From NCBI GenBank assembly GCA_029260345.1, contig JAJDDK010000006.1:558001-622000 (forward strand): a DNA stretch of 64,000 nucleotides. The letters run 5' to 3'. The DNA is from Phycisphaerales bacterium (GTDB taxonomy: Bacteria > Planctomycetota > Phycisphaerae > Phycisphaerales > UBA1924). The notes below the pieces were generated by a model. The model did no database searches. It was not told where the DNA came from and saw only the letters and a list, made by a program, of their open reading frames with translations. Of this stretch, positions 41,719 through 47,448 are shown piece by piece (within the stretch, counting starts at the first letter, position 1; every line of letters begins with the position of its first letter). The position numbers were made by a program, and so were the translations under genes.

Positions 41719-44205
41719 TCAGTTGTTCATCGTCCGAATCATCGCGGCTTTCTTCGCTTCATCAGCCGGCGCCATCTGGCTCGGTCCGAGTTTGAAATGA
41801 ACCTTGCCAAGTTGTCCGGTGAACTTGAACGGCAGCTTGTAGTCGTCGTTCAACGGCGTGCGCGTGTCCATGCCGACGTCGAGCGATTCATCAATCGTGA
41901 GAATGGCGGGAATTGAGCCCGGCATCTTGACGGTGTCCACGGTCTTGCCGTCCACCTTGAAGACACCCGTGCCGCCCTTGCCCATGCCGGGGCCGTCGTA
42001 GGTGAAGTCAAACTCGATTGTGTGCTTGCCGCGCGAGAGGGCGCTGGCGCCTTCCCATCGGAAGTGATGCAGGCCGAGCAGGTTGTACGAGAACACCGGC
42101 TTGCCTTCGAGCAGATACATCCCGTATCCGCCGAATCGTCCGCCGCATGTGACGATCATGCCCTCGCCGCCGCCATTGGGGACGGTGATGTCAGCGGTGA
42201 TCGTGAAGGATCGGGCGAGAATGTTCGGCGCGGCGCTGTTGGGAATGCCGTTCATCTCCGTCGTGTAGGTGAACTCAGAGAGGCCGGCGGTGTAGCTCGG
42301 TTTGGGCGAAAGAATGCGCGGCAGGATTGAATTGTCCAGCGGAAGCACGTTGTACTTCGACGCTTCCACCCAGAAGAGGTCCTGCAATTCGCGCAGCTTG
42401 TCCGGGTTCTTCTTCGCAAGGTCGTTCATCTGGGAGAAGTCGTCGTCAATGTTGTACAGCTCCCAGTTGTAGCCGCTCACGACGTTGGGGAACTTCGCCA
42501 GGCCCATGAGCCACGGCGGCGCCGGCGGGGTCGTCGTCGCGACCCAGCCTTCGTGATACAGCGCGCGGTTGCCGAACATTTCGAAGTACTGCGTCGTGCG
42601 ATGGGACGGCGCCTTCGCGTTTTCTTTGTCCCACGTGTACACCATCGAAACGCCTTCGATCGGTTTCTGCTTGATGCCGTCCACCATGTCGGGCGCCGGG
42701 ATGCCGGTCGCTTCGAGGATCGTCGGGACGACGTCGATGAAGTGGTGGAACTGCGTGCGGATGCCGCCCACGTCCTTGATGCGCTTCGGCCACGCCATCG
42801 TCATGCCCTGGCGGGTGCCGCCGAAGTGCGAGGCGACCTGCTTGGTCCACTTGAACGGCGTGTCAAACGCCCACGACCATGCGACCGACATGTGCGGCGT
42901 CGTTTCCGGCGAACCCCACACGTCGTAGAACTTCATCTGCTCTTCAACCGGGACATCAATGCCCTGAATCGCGGCCATATCGAACGGCGTGCCGATCGTT
43001 GAGCCCTCGGCGCTCGAACCGTTGTCACCACTGATGTAGATGATCAACGTGTTGTCGAGCTTGCCCATGTCTTCGACCGCTTGAATGACGCGGCCGATTT
43101 CGTAATCGGTGTAGGCGACGTACGCCGCGAAGACTTCAGCCTGGCGCGCGAAGAGTTTCTTCTCCTGCGCGGTGAGCGTGTCCCACTTGGAAAGTTTGGC
43201 GCCGTTGAATTCGGGCTGTCCGTCCGGCCACGGAGTGAGCTGAGTGCCGGGCGGGATCACGCCGAGTTTTTTCTGGTTGGCGAAGATCTGCTCGCGCAGT
43301 TCGTTCCAGCCCATGTCGAACTTGCCCTTGAACTTGTCGATCCACTCCTGCGTGGGCTGGTGCGGGGCGTGCGTCGCGCCGGGCACGTAGTAGCAGAAGA
43401 ACGGCTTGTCAGGTGCGGTTGCGTTGAGTTGATTCAGGTACTGAATCGCATCGTCCGCCATGCCGGTGATGAGGTTGAAGTTCGGGTCTTCGCGCCACGG
43501 ATGGATCTGCGTGTGGCCGCGGAAGAGCCACGGCGTCCACTGGTCGGTCTCGCCGCCCATGAAGCCGTAGAAGTAGTCAAAGCCCATGCCGCTGGGCCAC
43601 TGATCGAACGGCCCTGCCACGCTGTACTGATAGTCCGGCGTGTTGTGGTTCTTGCCGAACCATGAGGTCGCGTAACCATTCTCGCGGAGGATGTTGCCGA
43701 TGGTGGCGTTGTCCGGCCCGATGATGGAGTCGTAGCCGGGGTAGCCGGTGGCCTGTTCCGAAATCACACCGAAACCAACCGAATGGTGATTGCGCCCGGT
43801 GATGAGCGCGGCGCGCGACGGCGAACACAGCGCGGTGGAGTGCATCTGCGTGTAGCGCAAACCCATCTTCGCGATGCGATCCATCGTCGGTGTCGGGATG
43901 ACGCCGCCGAAGGTGTCGTAAATGCCGTAGCCCTGATCGTCGGTCATGATCAGGAGCACGTTGGGCGCGCCCTCCGGCGGGACGATGTTCGCCGGCCAGA
44001 ACGGTTTGGAGTCTTTCGCGTCCAGACCAATCTTGCCGCCAAAGGGCGGCGCCGGCGCCGGGAGATAGCTGCCGTCAATCGTGGTCGTGGCGCTTGGAGA
44101 ACCGGGCTCGCCGGTCGTTTGTTGTTTGTTCTGCGCGCACGCAGAAAACGTGGCGCCGACAAGCACCGCGGCTGCCGCAGCACGCGCGGCGAAGTGCAGT
44201 TTCAT
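41719..44205 (-). CDS. Arylsulfatase-type lipoprotein with C-terminal lectin-like domain
   Basis: 828 residues. Signal peptide with lipobox FSAC (Cys23). Sulfatase domain from about residue 80: metal Asp89/Asp90 in LIMTDDQGYG, the formylglycine motif Cys127 in LCSPSRAALITGRN, FGKNHN (Lys/His), then YISGDNGSS metal strand (Asp-Asn). From about residue 640 to 820 there is a concanavalin/LamG-like beta domain (SYNLLGLHHFRWEG, HTIEFDFTYDG). The Cys must be oxidised by a formylglycine-generating enzyme not in the window. Family known for desulfating algal/host polysaccharides; substrate unknown. SD GGGGA lies about 10 bases before the ATG. Confidence 0.88.
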   Translation of the reverse strand: MKLHFAARAAAAAVLVGATFSACAQNKQQTTGEPGSPSATTTIDGSYLPAPAPPFGGKIGLDAKDSKPFWPANIVPPEGAPNVLLIMTDDQGYGIYDTFGGVIPTPTMDRIAKMGLRYTQMHSTALCSPSRAALITGRNHHSVGFGVISEQATGYPGYDSIIGPDNATIGNILRENGYATSWFGKNHNTPDYQYSVAGPFDQWPSGMGFDYFYGFMGGETDQWTPWLFRGHTQIHPWREDPNFNLITGMADDAIQYLNQLNATAPDKPFFCYYVPGATHAPHQPTQEWIDKFKGKFDMGWNELREQIFANQKKLGVIPPGTQLTPWPDGQPEFNGAKLSKWDTLTAQEKKLFARQAEVFAAYVAYTDYEIGRVIQAVEDMGKLDNTLIIYISGDNGSSAEGSTIGTPFDMAAIQGIDVPVEEQMKFYDVWGSPETTPHMSVAWSWAFDTPFKWTKQVASHFGGTRQGMTMAWPKRIKDVGGIRTQFHHFIDVVPTILEATGIPAPDMVDGIKQKPIEGVSMVYTWDKENAKAPSHRTTQYFEMFGNRALYHEGWVATTTPPAPPWLMGLAKFPNVVSGYNWELYNIDDDFSQMNDLAKKNPDKLRELQDLFWVEASKYNVLPLDNSILPRILSPKPSYTAGLSEFTYTTEMNGIPNSAAPNILARSFTITADITVPNGGGEGMIVTCGGRFGGYGMYLLEGKPVFSYNLLGLHHFRWEGASALSRGKHTIEFDFTYDGPGMGKGGTGVFKVDGKTVDTVKMPGSIPAILTIDESLDVGMDTRTPLNDDYKLPFKFTGQLGKVHFKLGPSQMAPADEAKKAAMIRTMNN

Positions 44206-44610
44206 GATTCTCAGTCCCCTTAAATAACCGTGTGCATCCCGCCCCTCGCAGGATTGGGGTCGAACACATCAGTGTGAACCGTCTGAATCCTAAAAATACT
44301 GGGGGCGGGCTGGGGGGACAACTCGAGGGGAAAACGCGGTGATTGGTCTTCGTGAGGGATGAATGCGGGTGATTGGGTTTTGTTTTTGGCTGTCGAGGTT
44401 CGATGTGCCGTGGTCTCGCTGAAGGCGAGGCGATGAAGGTGGCTGCACACGCAACGCACGACCCGGTCTGCGACCGGACCATGGCACATAGACTCGGTGC
44501 TCCCTAGTGATCAAACCCGGCCACCTGCCTAAGCCTTGTGCGTCATGAAAGGCTTTAATGCTTGTGAATTACGGCTTTAGCGGAAGCAGTTTGCTCGCCC
44601 AGGCCTAATC
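44206..44610. other. Intergenic region at the left edge of the AT-rich cassette
   Basis: 405 bases between the divergent sulfatase and phosphotransferase-fold genes. The first 300 bases are of host-like base composition with no gene found; about position 44510 composition shifts to AT-rich. No transposase remnant, tRNA or direct repeat with the right edge was recognised. It must contain the promoters of both genes, but none stands out. Confidence 0.5.
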
Positions 44611-45828
44611 ATGCGTCTGGAAACCTTGACGCGAGGTGAGCTTGGAAAGGAATTGCTAGATTATTTGAAAGTCTATTCCGCCCTTCACAGACGAGCTTCG
44701 ACCATGAAAACTGTCGTGTTTGATCATCTAAATCTCAATGATGCAAGTCGAACCCTCATATCCAAAGCCATTGACCCTTCGCAGCACGTCTTCTTGGCCG
44801 CGTTAGACAAGGGACTTAGCGGTTCATCGGTTTGGCTCGCGCGATGGCCTGTTCATCCATCTATCCAATCGAAGTATCATGTGTTTAAAATTGGACCAGC
44901 TTCAAAATTAACCCGAGAGCATGATGCTATTGTAAAGATTGTTTCACGCATTGAAAAAGGTTTTCCAAATGTAGAGTTCATTCAATCCGAAAACGATGAA
45001 CTTGATCTTGCATTGTTGCTCCAGGAATTCGTCGGAACTTCCGACGGTGCTGTCAGGAATCTCAAGTCATATTTTGCTCGTGCCAAACCATCCGAAGCAG
45101 AAGGCGTGATTAACAAATTATATTCCGAGCGACTTCATGCATGGCATTATGAAGTGAAGTCGGCACAGCATAATCACGACGAAGGCACGCCTCCAAGTAC
45201 ATATGCGGAGGCGTTGGATTGGTGGGTTAGTCGAGCTAATATCAATGAGGCCGCAGAAAGCGTTGGAAAGTCTAGTATTGAAAAACTGCTGGGTGAAAAA
45301 TTTGGCTTTTCAATTGACTCATTACAGCATGAACTTGGGCGGTTGGCGAGCTTGGCCGATACATTTCCCATGGGGCCAGTGCATGGGGATCTTCATGCAC
45401 AGAATATACTTTTGGATTCCTATGATCAAATTCAGGTAATTGATTATGGATGGACCAGTTTTCGTTGGAGGGCAATTGATTTTTTAATGTTAGAGTGCTC
45501 ACTCAAATTTCTCGTCGCACCGAATTACGTTGACATCAATGATTTGTTATTGCTTGATGACGTTGTTGAGGCGGGATCAATGATTGATTTTGTTCGCCTA
45601 AATGAATGTCGCTATGGTGAACGTCTTGAATCAATTGCTAGAGCGGTGCGGGCAATTCGGCATCATGCTCTTACGTCTGGGGCGAGTTCAACAATTTTAC
45701 AGTACAGGCGAGGTTTAGCAATGCTAATGAATGGGTTGACTTCGCTTCCCGGTGATGTGAACAAAGCCTATCTTCTTTGTAGTCTCGCGAGGACGATGAA
45801 TCAGGTGCGCTGCGATGAAGAGAACTAA
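44611..45828 (+). CDS. Phosphotransferase (APH/kinase-fold) protein, first gene of AT-rich cassette
   Basis: 405 residues. Residues 1-70 are a helical N-terminal region. The N-lobe follows: LDKGLSGSSVWLARW is the nucleotide-binding strand-turn, Lys93 in HVFKIG and Glu in LTREHDAI would be the salt bridge. The C-lobe carries PVHGDLHAQNILLD with catalytic Asp260 and Asn265, and Asp278 in QVIDYGWTSF as the DFG-like metal ligand. This layout is APH/choline-kinase-like rather than protein-kinase. All catalytic residues are present, so it should be an active ATP-dependent kinase of an unknown small molecule or protein. AT-rich codon use differs strongly from neighbours. Overlaps the next gene by 14 bases. 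Confidence 0.7.
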   Translation: MRLETLTRGELGKELLDYLKVYSALHRRASTMKTVVFDHLNLNDASRTLISKAIDPSQHVFLAALDKGLSGSSVWLARWPVHPSIQSKYHVFKIGPASKLTREHDAIVKIVSRIEKGFPNVEFIQSENDELDLALLLQEFVGTSDGAVRNLKSYFARAKPSEAEGVINKLYSERLHAWHYEVKSAQHNHDEGTPPSTYAEALDWWVSRANINEAAESVGKSSIEKLLGEKFGFSIDSLQHELGRLASLADTFPMGPVHGDLHAQNILLDSYDQIQVIDYGWTSFRWRAIDFLMLECSLKFLVAPNYVDINDLLLLDDVVEAGSMIDFVRLNECRYGERLESIARAVRAIRHHALTSGASSTILQYRRGLAMLMNGLTSLPGDVNKAYLLCSLARTMNQVRCDEEN

Positions 45829-46447
45829 AGAATCAAACCTTCTACAGGGTCCGTATGATCATTTGTACAGCGCGACGCAGTATCTTTGGCCGCTGAGGCC
45901 CGGGCGAATGGTCAAGCGTGCAGTTGAGATCGCTAGTCCTGGTCGGGCGCTCGATTTGGGTTGCGGTGATGGCAAGCATCTCGTTTATCTTCAAGAAATG
46001 GGATGGTGCGTAGATGGGGTCGACATCAGTCAAATAGCACTGGCAAAAGCTCGTGAGCGAATAGCGACTCACTGCGGCTTGTTGTCGGGGAATTTGCTTT
46101 GTAATGACGTGGTGAGTGCGCCAATAAATTTACAGCAGTATAAATTAATCATAATGTATGGACTTTGTCATTGTCTTGATGAAAGAAAATATCTTAGCTT
46201 ATGGAATAATATCCGATCGAATGCAACGCATGGGACAATTGTCGCCTATGCATCATTTGACGATGGCTTGCCGATACCTAAAGAGCATGGGACTGGTGCG
46301 CTATACTTGCGTTCTCGCGAGAGAGTGCTCTCTAGTTTTGGCGGAATGACGGTTCACTGTACTGAAACTGGCACTATTCAAGAGCGCCATGGGGCGGGTG
46401 AGTTACACGAACATTCGATGACTTGGGTATTAGCGGAGGTCGTTTGA
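45815..46447 (+). CDS. Class I SAM-dependent methyltransferase (TehB/Methyltransf_11-like)
   Basis: 210 residues. SAM-binding motif I ALDLGCGDGKHLVYL (about residues 44-59), motif II acidic residue in VDGVDISQIALAKAR, and motif IV-like KLIIMYGLCHCLDE (about 110-123). The N-terminus GPYDHLYSATQYLWPLRPG and the small-molecule-type core suggest a metabolite or lipid rather than DNA target; no DNA target-recognition domain is present. Its start lies 14 bases inside the kinase gene and its stop shares a base with the next gene's ATG. The same AT-rich composition indicates joint acquisition. Confidence 0.72.
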   Translation: MKRTKESNLLQGPYDHLYSATQYLWPLRPGRMVKRAVEIASPGRALDLGCGDGKHLVYLQEMGWCVDGVDISQIALAKARERIATHCGLLSGNLLCNDVVSAPINLQQYKLIIMYGLCHCLDERKYLSLWNNIRSNATHGTIVAYASFDDGLPIPKEHGTGALYLRSRERVLSSFGGMTVHCTETGTIQERHGAGELHEHSMTWVLAEVV

Positions 46448-46974
46448 TGACGAGTCGATGGTTTATCTCAGGCTTGCCTGCGTCAGGCAAGACTACAGTC
46501 GCGAAGCATTTAAGCAGGCTGACCAGTGCTCCAGTTGTAGATGTGGGCGATGTCCTTCGCGAAGCGCTGGCGGGTGAAGGAGTTTTGTGCGAGCATCGTT
46601 CCGAAATTGGCCCAAAATTTATTAAACAATTCGGGCGGGATTCAATACATTTTCCGATCATAGCGAAAGTACGCCAGAAAGAAGATGTGATTGTTGATGG
46701 TGTGCGGCTGCCGAATACTTTGAGTGAATGTAAAAAGGCGATCAAATGCCGGACATTATATGTGCATGCCGATGACAAGGAGCGGAAAGAACGCAAATTG
46801 AGCGCGCTGACAAGAAATGGGTTACCAGTTTCTGAAGCTATTTTGAAATGGAACGAGTATTCACTGTTTGACGATGAAGCAAGGGGAGCGCGTTATGTTG
46901 CAGATGAAGTAATCGAGAATACGCAGAGTCTAGATGAGCTATTTCAGAGAATAAGGGCGCTGCTTGTCGTGTGA
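46447..46974 (+). CDS. P-loop kinase-like protein (AAA_18/UPF0200-like), third cassette gene
   Basis: 175 residues. Walker A at the N-terminus: FISGLPASGKTT (Lys15). Then VVDVGDVLREAL, the adenylate-kinase-like lid helix, a Walker B-like strand DVIVDGVRLPN, and TLYVHADDKERKERKLS with basic residues as in dephospho-CoA kinase/AAA_18 proteins. The layout resembles archaeal UPF0200 and nucleotide kinases such as phage dNMP kinases; substrate unknown. ATG 46447 overlaps the methyltransferase stop (TGATG); an upstream in-frame start at 46423 is possible. Closes the cassette; no gene follows on this strand. Confidence 0.7.
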   Translation: MTSRWFISGLPASGKTTVAKHLSRLTSAPVVDVGDVLREALAGEGVLCEHRSEIGPKFIKQFGRDSIHFPIIAKVRQKEDVIVDGVRLPNTLSECKKAIKCRTLYVHADDKERKERKLSALTRNGLPVSEAILKWNEYSLFDDEARGARYVADEVIENTQSLDELFQRIRALLVV

Positions 46975-47076
46975 GAAGGCAGATCTTGCTGAGCATGTTT
47001 GTAAAAGCTTGGAGGTATACTTGGAAAAAAGACAAAGCTCATCGCGTATTTGAAGGCCATTCTAGGAATCGTGATT

Positions 47077-47448
47077 TCATTGTTCAGCCCGCGCATGCTT
47101 CTCCGCCGCAGTCAGCATTTTCTCGTACCGCTCCTGCGGCAGGCCGAGTTTGTCGGCGAAGTGTTGGAGGACGACGCGTTCGGATTGAGTCAGCACGCCG
47201 TCGGCGATGGCGACCTGGAAGAGGGCCTTCATGGTCTCGTCGGGGTCGGTCTTGAAGATGTCGAACTGGGTTTGAAAGAAAGACGGGTCTTCGCTGGCGC
47301 GGTTGATCATGGCTTGCAGCGAGGCGCCGCCGACGCCGGCGTTTTCGGCGAGTCGTTTGAGGAGCGGGTGCTCGGCGCCGCAGACTTCGCCGTCGATTCC
47401 GGCGACGCAGCAGGCGGCACGGAGGACTTCGACGTGTCGCATGGGCAT
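47077..47448 (-). CDS. TerB-like (DjlA N-terminal-type) helical protein
   Basis: 123 residues, all helical. The TerB family pattern includes VAGIDGEVCGAEHPLLKRLAEN near the start and VAIADGVLTQSERVVLQHFA near the end, each with Asp-Gly at a helix turn (metal-binding-like). Function unknown; TerB proteins sit in tellurite-resistance and membrane-stress modules. ATG 47448 is the only good start. It lies just right of the AT-rich cassette, with normal host composition. Confidence 0.7.
   Translation of the reverse strand: MPMRHVEVLRAACCVAGIDGEVCGAEHPLLKRLAENAGVGGASLQAMINRASEDPSFFQTQFDIFKTDPDETMKALFQVAIADGVLTQSERVVLQHFADKLGLPQERYEKMLTAAEKHARAEQ

What the first reader, a model, noticed from the sequence alone, without database searches (positions are those of the whole stretch)
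44611..46974. Compact AT-rich three-gene cassette: APH-fold kinase, SAM methyltransferase, P-loop kinase
Seen: three same-strand genes whose frames overlap by 14 bases and then by one base (TGATG), so they are one translation unit. Base composition changes abruptly to AT-rich around 44.5 kb and back around 47.07 kb. All three keep catalytic residues (Asp260/Asn265/Asp278 and Lys93 in the kinase; DLGCGDG in the methyltransferase; GLPASGKTT in the P-loop protein). Established: each fold acts on small molecules or nucleotides. Inference: a horizontally acquired pathway or defence-like module that phosphorylates, methylates and re-phosphorylates a small molecule. No transport or resistance gene lies beside it, and I know of no described operon with this trio.
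Basis: partly seen in the sequence, partly recalled or inferred. Interest (0 to 1): 0.72.

Follow-up and report, generated by a model that had tools for sequence, protein, structure and literature searches.

The report
Mobile kinase–methyltransferase–kinase operon
A small, probably recently acquired set of three linked bacterial genes (a sugar-type kinase, a methyltransferase and a nucleotide-type kinase) recurs in the same order in distant bacteria and has relatives inside what look like virus-defence gene clusters, so it probably builds or alters a nucleotide-like molecule, though nobody has tested this.

Summary
Three same-strand genes overlap by 14 bases and by 1 base in an AT-rich islet of about 2.5 kb (GC 0.46 against 0.60; GC3 0.40-0.45 against 0.67-0.84 in six neighbours). 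A was not found in 60 relatives. A is an APH-fold kinase of Pfam family TCAD9, B a class I SAM methyltransferase, C an adenylate-kinase-like P-loop kinase nearest to UPF0200. The trio recurs. A motif scan of about 85,000 species genomes returned nine stretches; three hold close A orthologues, and two of those three (Solirubrobacter phytolaccae, an actinomycetote MAG) carry A-B-C in the same order and strand; a Thaumarchaeota MAG has A alone. In Solirubrobacter a ribonucleotide-reductase-like gene overlaps A upstream. In a Bryobacterales MAG, homologues of all three lie in one gene run with SIR2 (ThsA-like), Ham1, HIT, dCTP-deaminase-like and AIRS genes. Another TCAD9 run holds HMUDK_hel, MazG, ThsB-type TIR and Nmad2. 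But none of 15 other TCAD9 loci in the phylum sample has B or C. I read the trio as a horizontally moving module that makes or modifies a nucleotide-like molecule, probably in phage conflict. Substrate and defence role are inferred. New variant of a known kind.

The parts
44500..47070 (.). AT-rich islet that carries the trio
   Evidence: Composition profile; GC and GC3 of genes; edges approximate. No direct repeats span both edges; two short inverted pairs do (16 and 14 nt, 81 and 86% complementary) and may be chance. No Rfam match.
44704..45828 (+). A: APH-fold small-molecule kinase, Pfam TCAD9 (PF19974). ORF open from ATG 44611 (405 aa); probable start ATG 44704 (374 aa)
   Evidence: TCAD9 81.9 bits, cut-off 40, E 6.9e-23; APH 30.2 bits, cut-off 23.2. 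Orthologues at 40/37/34% identity. Model pLDDT 75; APH-superfamily kinases at Z 12-16 in the listed rows, best glucosamine kinase 6hwl Z 16.1 (rmsd 4.8, 303 aligned) and 5-methylthioribose kinase 2pyw Z 15.5, tied.
45815..46447 (+). B: class I SAM-dependent methyltransferase, TehB/Methyltransf_25-like
   Evidence: Methyltransf_25 47.6 bits (cut-off 27), TehB 37.7 bits (cut-off 20.4); orthologues 44/41% identical; NCBIfam TehB equivalog cut-offs not reached.
46447..46974 (+). C: adenylate-kinase-like P-loop kinase, nearest to UPF0200 / PRK08356
   Evidence: AAA_17 43.4 and AAA_18 34.7 bits, above cut-offs. Best NCBIfam match PRK08356, 33.1 bits, far below its cut-off of 189. Model pLDDT 92.9; UPF0200 SSO1041 3h0k Z 18.2 (rmsd 2.6, 160 aligned) and AMP-bound 3lw7 Z 18.1, adenylate kinases at Z about 15-17. 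Orthologues 31/29% identical.
45815..45828 (+). 14-base overlap of A and B
   Evidence: in L054 A and B overlap too (ATGA); in L060 they are 7 bases apart.
46445..46449 (+). TGATG stop/start of B and C
   Evidence: in L054 B and C overlap (GTGA, or longer from an upstream ATG); in L060 they are 2 bases apart.
47077..47448 (-). Flank: TerB-domain gene, neighbour of AONS-like and HU genes, not part of the cassette
   Evidence: TerB 42.5 bits; HU-AONS-TerB order kept in G031 (L086), followed there by a GNAT-like gene (by eye) instead of the trio. In G009 TerB lies apart from HU-AONS; in G028 no HU or AONS match was found on the 8.6 kb held.
41719..44205 (-). Flank: sulfatase gene
   Evidence: Sulfatase 198.9 bits.

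Best explanation
The trio is a horizontally moving, translationally coupled three-enzyme module that makes or modifies a nucleotide-like small molecule, most likely as part of phage conflict. Proposed route: A, an APH-fold kinase, phosphorylates a hydroxyl of a nucleoside-like or ribose-bearing compound; B methylates the compound; C, an adenylate-kinase-like enzyme, adds a further phosphate to the monophosphate. The product would act as an antimetabolite (in the manner of viperin products) or as a signal or signal precursor for an effector encoded elsewhere. In a larger relative the same activities are joined to a SIR2 effector and nucleotide-processing enzymes, and in one relative a ribonucleotide-reductase-like gene is coupled to A. 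Shown by sequence: the genes, their families and predicted folds, the gene order and its recurrence, the islet, and the neighbours in relatives. Inferred: co-transcription, nucleotide substrate, reaction order, antiviral role.
For: Recurrence: in the genome-contig scan (84,980 species) for a motif of A, 9 stretches matched; 5 of 9 encode an A relative, 3 of 9 are close (E 2e-75, 4e-68, 2e-64), and 2 of those 3 have B (E 1e-50, 2e-47) and C (E 4e-12, 2e-18) directly downstream on the same strand (E-values are for the ORFs of the 12 stretches fetched). C has an NMP-kinase fold with an AMP-bound nearest structure, and 3 of 3 C members match PHROG 139, deoxynucleoside monophosphate kinase, though the window protein only over residues 6-42. 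Solirubrobacter: a protein with the RNR barrel domain (PF02867, 165.6 bits) and an NPCGEQ motif whose stop overlaps the start of A; two RNRs matching the whole profile lie elsewhere in that genome. Bryobacterales L058/L070: on one strand a C-like domain (hhalign probability 90.5, E 1.4e-6, 164 columns), a B-like MTase (98.9 bits, E 2.2e-29 to the B profile), SIR2 (PADLOC ThsA 5.7e-28), Ham1, HIT (PADLOC ThsC2 2.7e-5), DCD, a TCAD9-like kinase (to A: E 2e-11, E 3.5e-12 to the A profile; not scanned by Pfam) and AIRS (Pfam for the others; layout). L062/L071: HMUDK_hel, TCAD9, MazG/MazG_C, ThsB_TIR, Nmad2. L069: the trio lies between a SIR2_2 protein and a dGTPase-like HD protein, with a phage integrase beyond. 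Patchy distribution.
Against: No substrate is known for any of the three. In the window no effector, nuclease, TIR or SIR2 family was found among the ten flanking proteins scanned (of 17). TCAD9 genes in the 15 other loci of the Planctomycetota sample have no B or C relative beside them (0 of 15; four of those stretches are shorter than 10 kb). The Thaumarchaeota A orthologue has no B or C on the 14 kb held. Around L054 the other neighbours do not look like defence genes (by eye; not scanned). APH-fold kinases act on sugars, choline, homoserine, drugs and, in lanthipeptide synthetases, peptides; Z scores do not separate these, so a nucleoside substrate for A is a guess. The C-like match in L070 had no specificity control against other P-loop kinases. 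B's best PADLOC match (mad2, E 1e-11) lies in the methyltransferase part and may be generic. Only three trios are known, two of them apparently from one class.
Confidence: 0.42

Rival explanations
1. Small-molecule natural-product or self-resistance cassette: the trio tailors or inactivates an antibiotic, peptide or nucleoside-type compound, with no antiviral role.
For: Foldseek ranks aminoglycoside phosphotransferases first for A; one A member matches the class III lanthionine synthetase model (E 6.9e-6) and lexapeptide LxmKY is among the fold rows (Z 14.0); C matches CPT, chloramphenicol phosphotransferase-like, below cut-off; the RNR-like gene in L054 could serve a nucleoside product.
Against: No transporter or synthase lies directly beside the trio in the window; in L054 and L060 not all neighbours were scanned. 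The window's A matches no APH resistance model at E 1. Relatives sit with SIR2, TIR, MazG, Nmad2, Ham1 and DCD.
Confidence: 0.2
2. Metabolic salvage module: a nucleoside kinase, methyltransferase and NMP kinase for salvage or detoxification of an unusual nucleoside, moved horizontally as a metabolic trait.
For: NMP-kinase fold of C; RNR-like neighbour in L054; ordinary flanks in the window.
Against: Patchiness (1 of 61; 4 of 392 with only distant other hits; 1 of 219; 1 of 151), the SIR2-bearing relative, and SIR2, HD and integrase neighbours in L069.
Confidence: 0.17
3. Nucleic-acid end or tRNA modification: C acts as a polynucleotide kinase and B as an RNA methyltransferase, as in Pnkp/Hen1-type repair.
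For: C has a weak match to PHROG 505, polynucleotide kinase (E 7.9e-4), and B to PHROG 4752, tRNA methyltransferase (E 0.0012).
Against: No ligase, phosphatase or RNA-binding domain was found in the trio; Hen1 matches only at E 0.0034 over 51 residues of B; C lies nearest to nucleotide kinases.
Confidence: 0.08
4. A is a protein kinase or toxin (HipA- or Bud32-like) and B and C modulate it.
For: Weak Bud32 and Ser/Thr kinase matches of A (E 0.00016 to 0.14); Pkinase 18.3 bits, below its cut-off of 31.7; PADLOC mad6 and PD-T4-6 at E 0.003-0.005.
Against: TCAD9 and APH exceed their cut-offs, the protein kinase families do not; VIA-align rows put metabolite kinases first.
Confidence: 0.07

Closest known systems
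TCAD9 (Pfam PF19974), named as linked to vWA-MoxR-VMAP conflict systems (PMC10910872, one figure-legend passage seen; PMC7159879, passages seen on APH-superfamily domains among VMAP effectors, which do not use the name TCAD9)
   Same: A matches the family above its cut-off and keeps its catalytic residues.
   Different: No vWA, MoxR or VMAP gene among the ten flanking proteins scanned; A belongs to a clade set apart from the nine other TCAD9 or TCAD9-like proteins in the tree (SH-like support 0.987, 19-22% identity).
Thoeris, in particular type II with an added HIT protein ThsC (PMC8565338, passages seen)
   Same: A relative run of genes (L070) has a ThsA-like SIR2 and a ThsC-like HIT gene beside TCAD9-like, B-like and C-like genes; another (L071) has a ThsB-type TIR.
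   Different: The trio itself has neither ThsA nor ThsB; PADLOC gives it no Thoeris match.
Nucleotide-modifying defence systems (PMC13092281, DefensePredictor, passages and legends seen): 5-hydroxymethyluracil kinase and thymidylate synthase among newly validated domains, dNMP kinase and NMAD in the legend of validated systems; aGPT-Pplase, MazG, MazG-C and dUTPase predicted, not validated
   Same: Same theme of nucleotide-active enzymes in defence; L071 shares HMUDK_hel, MazG and Nmad2 with these.
   Different: The APH kinase-methyltransferase-NMP kinase trio was not in the passages seen; supplements were not seen.
Prokaryotic viperins / ddhCTP with a nucleotide kinase partner (search listing only; mechanism recalled)
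   Same: Would work alike if the trio makes an antimetabolite nucleotide.
   Different: No radical SAM enzyme in the trio; chemistry differs.
UPF0200 / SSO1041 adenylate-kinase-related proteins (PDB 3lw7, 3h0k)
   Same: Closest fold and full-length sequence match to C.
   Different: 22-24% identity; neither of the two papers listed holds the name UPF0200, so its role stays unknown to me.

Membership tests
TCAD9 (PF19974) | Score above the curated cut-off of 40 bits | tested here: met
   81.9 bits; 74.5 bits summed in the genome frame
TCAD9 (PF19974) | APH-type catalytic HGD...N and ID residues | tested here: met
   H258, G259, D260, N265 and D278 invariant in A3 (four sequences) and in A1 (eight sequences)
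vWA-MoxR-VMAP ternary system | vWA, MoxR and VMAP genes next to the TCAD9 gene | tested here: not met
   None among ten flanking window proteins, both direct neighbours included, scanned by Pfam at E 1e-5; seven further genes between 33.5 and 55.7 kb not scanned
Aminoglycoside phosphotransferase (resistance) | Score above a curated APH resistance model | tested here: not met
   No APH resistance model for the window protein up to E 1; among the four A members two APH(6) models match one member each, at E 0.0026 and 0.0032
Tellurite methyltransferase TehB | NCBIfam TehB equivalog cut-offs (218-303 bits) | tested here: not met
   37-39 bits
Adenylate kinase / NMP kinase fold | P-loop kinase fold aligned over the whole domain | tested here: met
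   Predicted model, Z 15-18 over 156-168 residues in the 50 listed rows
Adenylate kinase (enzyme) | NCBIfam adk cut-off | tested here: not met
   28.6 bits against a cut-off of 168 for TIGR01351; activity not testable here
MADS defence system | PADLOC mad proteins encoded together | tested here: inconclusive
   B matches mad2 (E 1e-11) over positions 282-393 of 492, and A mad6 (E 0.0033) over 24 residues; partial, domain-level matches; no mad match in the ten flanking proteins at E 1e-5
Thoeris | ThsA effector and ThsB (TIR) | tested here: not met
   No PADLOC Thoeris match in the trio or the ten flanking proteins
Anti-phage defence system | Protection against phage | not testable with these tools
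   Needs a bench test

The most novel reading that the evidence does not exclude
The trio is the minimal core of an undescribed family of immune systems in which an APH-fold kinase, a methyltransferase and an NMP-kinase-like enzyme build a methylated, phosphorylated nucleotide. In minimal form the product is an antiviral antimetabolite (in Solirubrobacter further reduced by a dedicated ribonucleotide-reductase-like enzyme); in the expanded Bryobacterales form it is an immune signal read by a ThsA-like SIR2 effector and tuned by Ham1, HIT and dCTP-deaminase-like enzymes.
Probability: 0.18. Interest if true: 0.87.

Novelty: new variant of a known kind. Interest (0 to 1): 0.55.

Why it matters
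If right, it gives a small, testable three-gene core for a group of nucleotide-based conflict operons whose kinase (TCAD9) is, in the passages I saw, named only from its neighbours, and it points to a modified nucleotide that could be found by mass spectrometry. It would also give a reason for a dedicated ribonucleotide-reductase-like gene. Even if the role is metabolic, it is a conserved mobile pathway for which my nine searches found no description.

Tried and rejected
Searches that gave no relative: A in viral contigs and C; A in plasmids and phages (window A; L054 A in plasmids; L060 A in phages); C in plasmids; TCAD9 or TCAD9-like proteins of L058 and L071 in plasmids; single-protein scan of genome contigs with A (17 pattern matches, none confirmed). 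B gave 58 plasmid records, all below 60% identity; not followed. Of the 12 stretches from the two pattern scans, three from viral contigs (L051-L053) and four from genome contigs (L055, L056, L057, L059) gave no A, B or C match at E 0.1 and were dropped.

Rejected or unsupported readings: mobile element with visible ends (no direct repeats across both edges; two short inverted pairs may be chance); Rfam RNA; promoter and terminator scans no better than shuffles; VMAP ternary system. That L054 and L060 stand for two classes was dropped: the 20 non-centre genomes listed are the same, so seems largely to repeat. That the Solirubrobacter RNR-like gene is a mere fragment is weakened by its NPCGEQ motif (its catalytic meaning is recalled) and by C-terminal stretches that align with the full RNRs, but not excluded; its N-terminal part and start are uncertain. 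A bootstrap tree failed (thread setting) and only the FastTree result is used.
Full report
What is there. The window lies on contig C6 of a 3.40 Mb assembly. Its phylum is probably Planctomycetota: G387, which the tool calls same phylum, carries a DUF1559-like protein near its TCAD9 locus (by eye; the link of that family to planctomycetes is recalled). GC drops from about 0.60 to 0.43-0.49 between about 44.5 and 47.0 kb. The three genes are the three lowest-GC genes of 52 called by script in the window, and GC3 is 0.40-0.45 against 0.67-0.84 for six neighbours. A probably starts at Met32 (44704), where its orthologues start.

Families and folds. A: TCAD9 81.9 bits (cut-off 40) and APH 30.2 bits (cut-off 23.2). 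Its model (pLDDT 75) aligns best, with no clear winner, to glucosamine kinase (Z 16.1, rmsd 4.8, 303 aligned), methylthioribose kinase (Z 15.5) and maltokinase (Z 15.1). Foldseek alone ranks APH(3') enzymes first. B: class I methyltransferase, TehB-like but far below the TehB equivalog cut-offs; its best PADLOC match is part of mad2 (E 1e-11). C: AAA_17/18; its model (pLDDT 92.9) is nearest to UPF0200 SSO1041, including an AMP-bound structure (Z 18.1-18.2), with adenylate kinases at Z 15-17. A profile of three C proteins finds SSO1041 nearly full length at E 5e-10; adenylate kinase 9 has a better E-value (2e-12) but only over short, repeated P-loop stretches.

Acquisition. A has no match at E 1e-5 in 60 relatives (1 of 61 with the own genome). 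In a 392-genome sample of the phylum, A finds 4 (the own genome and three distant hits at E 6e-9 to 9e-6), C finds only the own genome at E 1e-6, and the TCAD9 profile finds 16, 15 of them over the cut-off, own genome included. One flank looks ancestral: 4 of 36 genomes of the family had a TerB match, the own genome included. Of the three others, G031 keeps HU, AONS-like and TerB in the same order, followed by a GNAT-like gene (by eye) and not the trio; in G009 HU and AONS are adjacent and TerB lies apart; in G028 no HU or AONS match is on the 8.6 kb held. I saw no direct repeats across both edges and no integrase among the ten flanking proteins scanned.

Is the trio a unit? A scan of genome contigs (84,980 species, tool description) with a degenerate pattern from a motif that A shares with two distant TCAD9 proteins gave 9 stretches. 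Five of the 9 encode an A relative. Three are close: Solirubrobacter phytolaccae L054 (E 2e-75), actinomycetote MAG palsa_612 L060 (E 4e-68) and Thaumarchaeota MAG L061 (E 2e-64). L054 and L060 carry B (E 1e-50, 2e-47) and C (E 4e-12, 2e-18) next on the same strand in the order A-B-C (E-values against the ORFs of the 12 stretches fetched). L061 has A alone on the 14 kb held. The orthologues are 40/37/34% (A), 44/41% (B) and 31/29% (C) identical to the window proteins. A FastTree tree of 13 TCAD9 or TCAD9-like proteins sets the four close A proteins apart from the other nine (0.987), with the order inside unresolved (0.24-0.58). The A profile at E 1e-8 finds only the centre itself around L054 (1 of 219, its class), L060 (1 of 179, apparently the same class and largely the same genomes) and L061 (1 of 151, its phylum); around L058 (phylum) it finds 2 of 169, L058 itself and one more distant protein. 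The pattern scan misses orthologues that vary in the motif, so the true number is probably higher.

What the relatives keep company with. L054/L068: directly upstream of A, with stop and start overlapping, lies a protein with the RNR barrel domain (165.6 bits). The open frame is 585 aa; tool matches cover residues from about 318 to 581, and by eye the likeness starts near residue 158; it keeps an NPCGEQ motif. Two RNRs that match the whole profile lie elsewhere in that genome. Its other neighbours do not look like defence genes (by eye). L069: a SIR2_2 protein upstream on the other strand, an unmatched ORF, the trio, a small gene, a dGTPase-like HD protein and a phage integrase. L070 (Bryobacterales): on one strand, mostly with 4-base overlaps but with a gap of about 270 bases between Ham1 and HIT, a protein with HARE-HTH, a NUDIX match just under its cut-off and a C-like P-loop domain; a B-like methyltransferase; SIR2 (best PADLOC match ThsA); Ham1; HIT (PADLOC ThsC2); DCD; a TCAD9-like kinase (by likeness to A; not scanned by Pfam); AIRS. 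Near it lie a HEPN_Swt1/DUF499 protein and a gene that reads like a Dam-type methylase (by eye). L071 (Planctomycetaceae): HMUDK_hel, TCAD9, MazG/MazG_C, ThsB_TIR, Nmad2. L005 and L006 have TCAD9 between a DCD-like and an AIRS-like gene with a HIT-like gene upstream (the other genes named by likeness to L058, where Pfam was run). Against this, none of the 15 other TCAD9 loci of the phylum sample (14 of them over the cut-off) has a B or C relative beside it (four stretches are shorter than 10 kb), and several TCAD9 domains are fused to an isochorismatase-like N-terminal part (by eye).

Mechanism. Three things point to a nucleotide-like substrate: the NMP-kinase fold of C, the coupled RNR-like gene, and the nucleotide-processing partners (Ham1, HIT, DCD, MazG, HMUDK_hel, Nmad2) of related TCAD9 genes. 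Two point to conflict: SIR2 and TIR partners and patchy spread. The reaction order is my inference. The PADLOC authors hypothesised that ThsC (HIT) forms or degrades a Thoeris signal (PMC8565338, passages seen). DefensePredictor reports 5-hydroxymethyluracil kinase and thymidylate synthase among newly validated defence domains, lists dNMP kinase and NMAD in the legend of validated systems, and predicts MazG, MazG-C and dUTPase (PMC13092281, passages and legends seen). Kaur et al. (author name recalled) noted active APH-superfamily domains among VMAP effectors that might act on small molecules (PMC7159879, passages seen). TCAD9 is named in a figure legend of PMC10910872.

Limits. Substrate, activity and antiviral role are untested. 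The C-like match in L070 was not checked against unrelated P-loop kinases. Trios number three, two apparently from one class. The literature library holds only open-licence papers, so 'not described' means not found in nine searches there.

Noticed in passing
L068:8031-9788 (-): Ribonucleotide reductase homologue (PF02867, NPCGEQ kept, shorter than the two full RNRs of the same genome) coupled to A in Solirubrobacter phytolaccae.
   Followed up: partly
L070:1328-9142 (-): Eight-gene run in a Bryobacterales MAG: HARE-HTH/NUDIX-like/P-loop protein, methyltransferase, ThsA-like SIR2, Ham1, HIT, dCTP-deaminase-like, TCAD9-like, AIRS. Looks like a Thoeris-like system that I did not find described.
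   Followed up: partly
L071:6446-10963 (+): Planctomycetaceae run HMUDK_hel, TCAD9, MazG/MazG_C, ThsB_TIR, Nmad2, followed by a large WD40-repeat protein with a TIR-like start (the start by eye).
   Followed up: partly
L005:4627-8329 and L006:4623-8355: Shorter set HIT-like, dCTP-deaminase-like, TCAD9, AIRS-like in two further genomes of the phylum, very alike in both (names other than TCAD9 by likeness to L058).
   Followed up: partly
L013, L014, L017, L018, L007: TCAD9 domains fused to an N-terminal isochorismatase-like part (by eye); L007 also has a phosphatase-like C-terminal part (by eye).
   Followed up: no
window:47077-47448: TerB-domain gene next to HU and AONS-like genes; also matches PADLOC PDC-S48 over the TerB part (E 1.6e-8).
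   Followed up: partly
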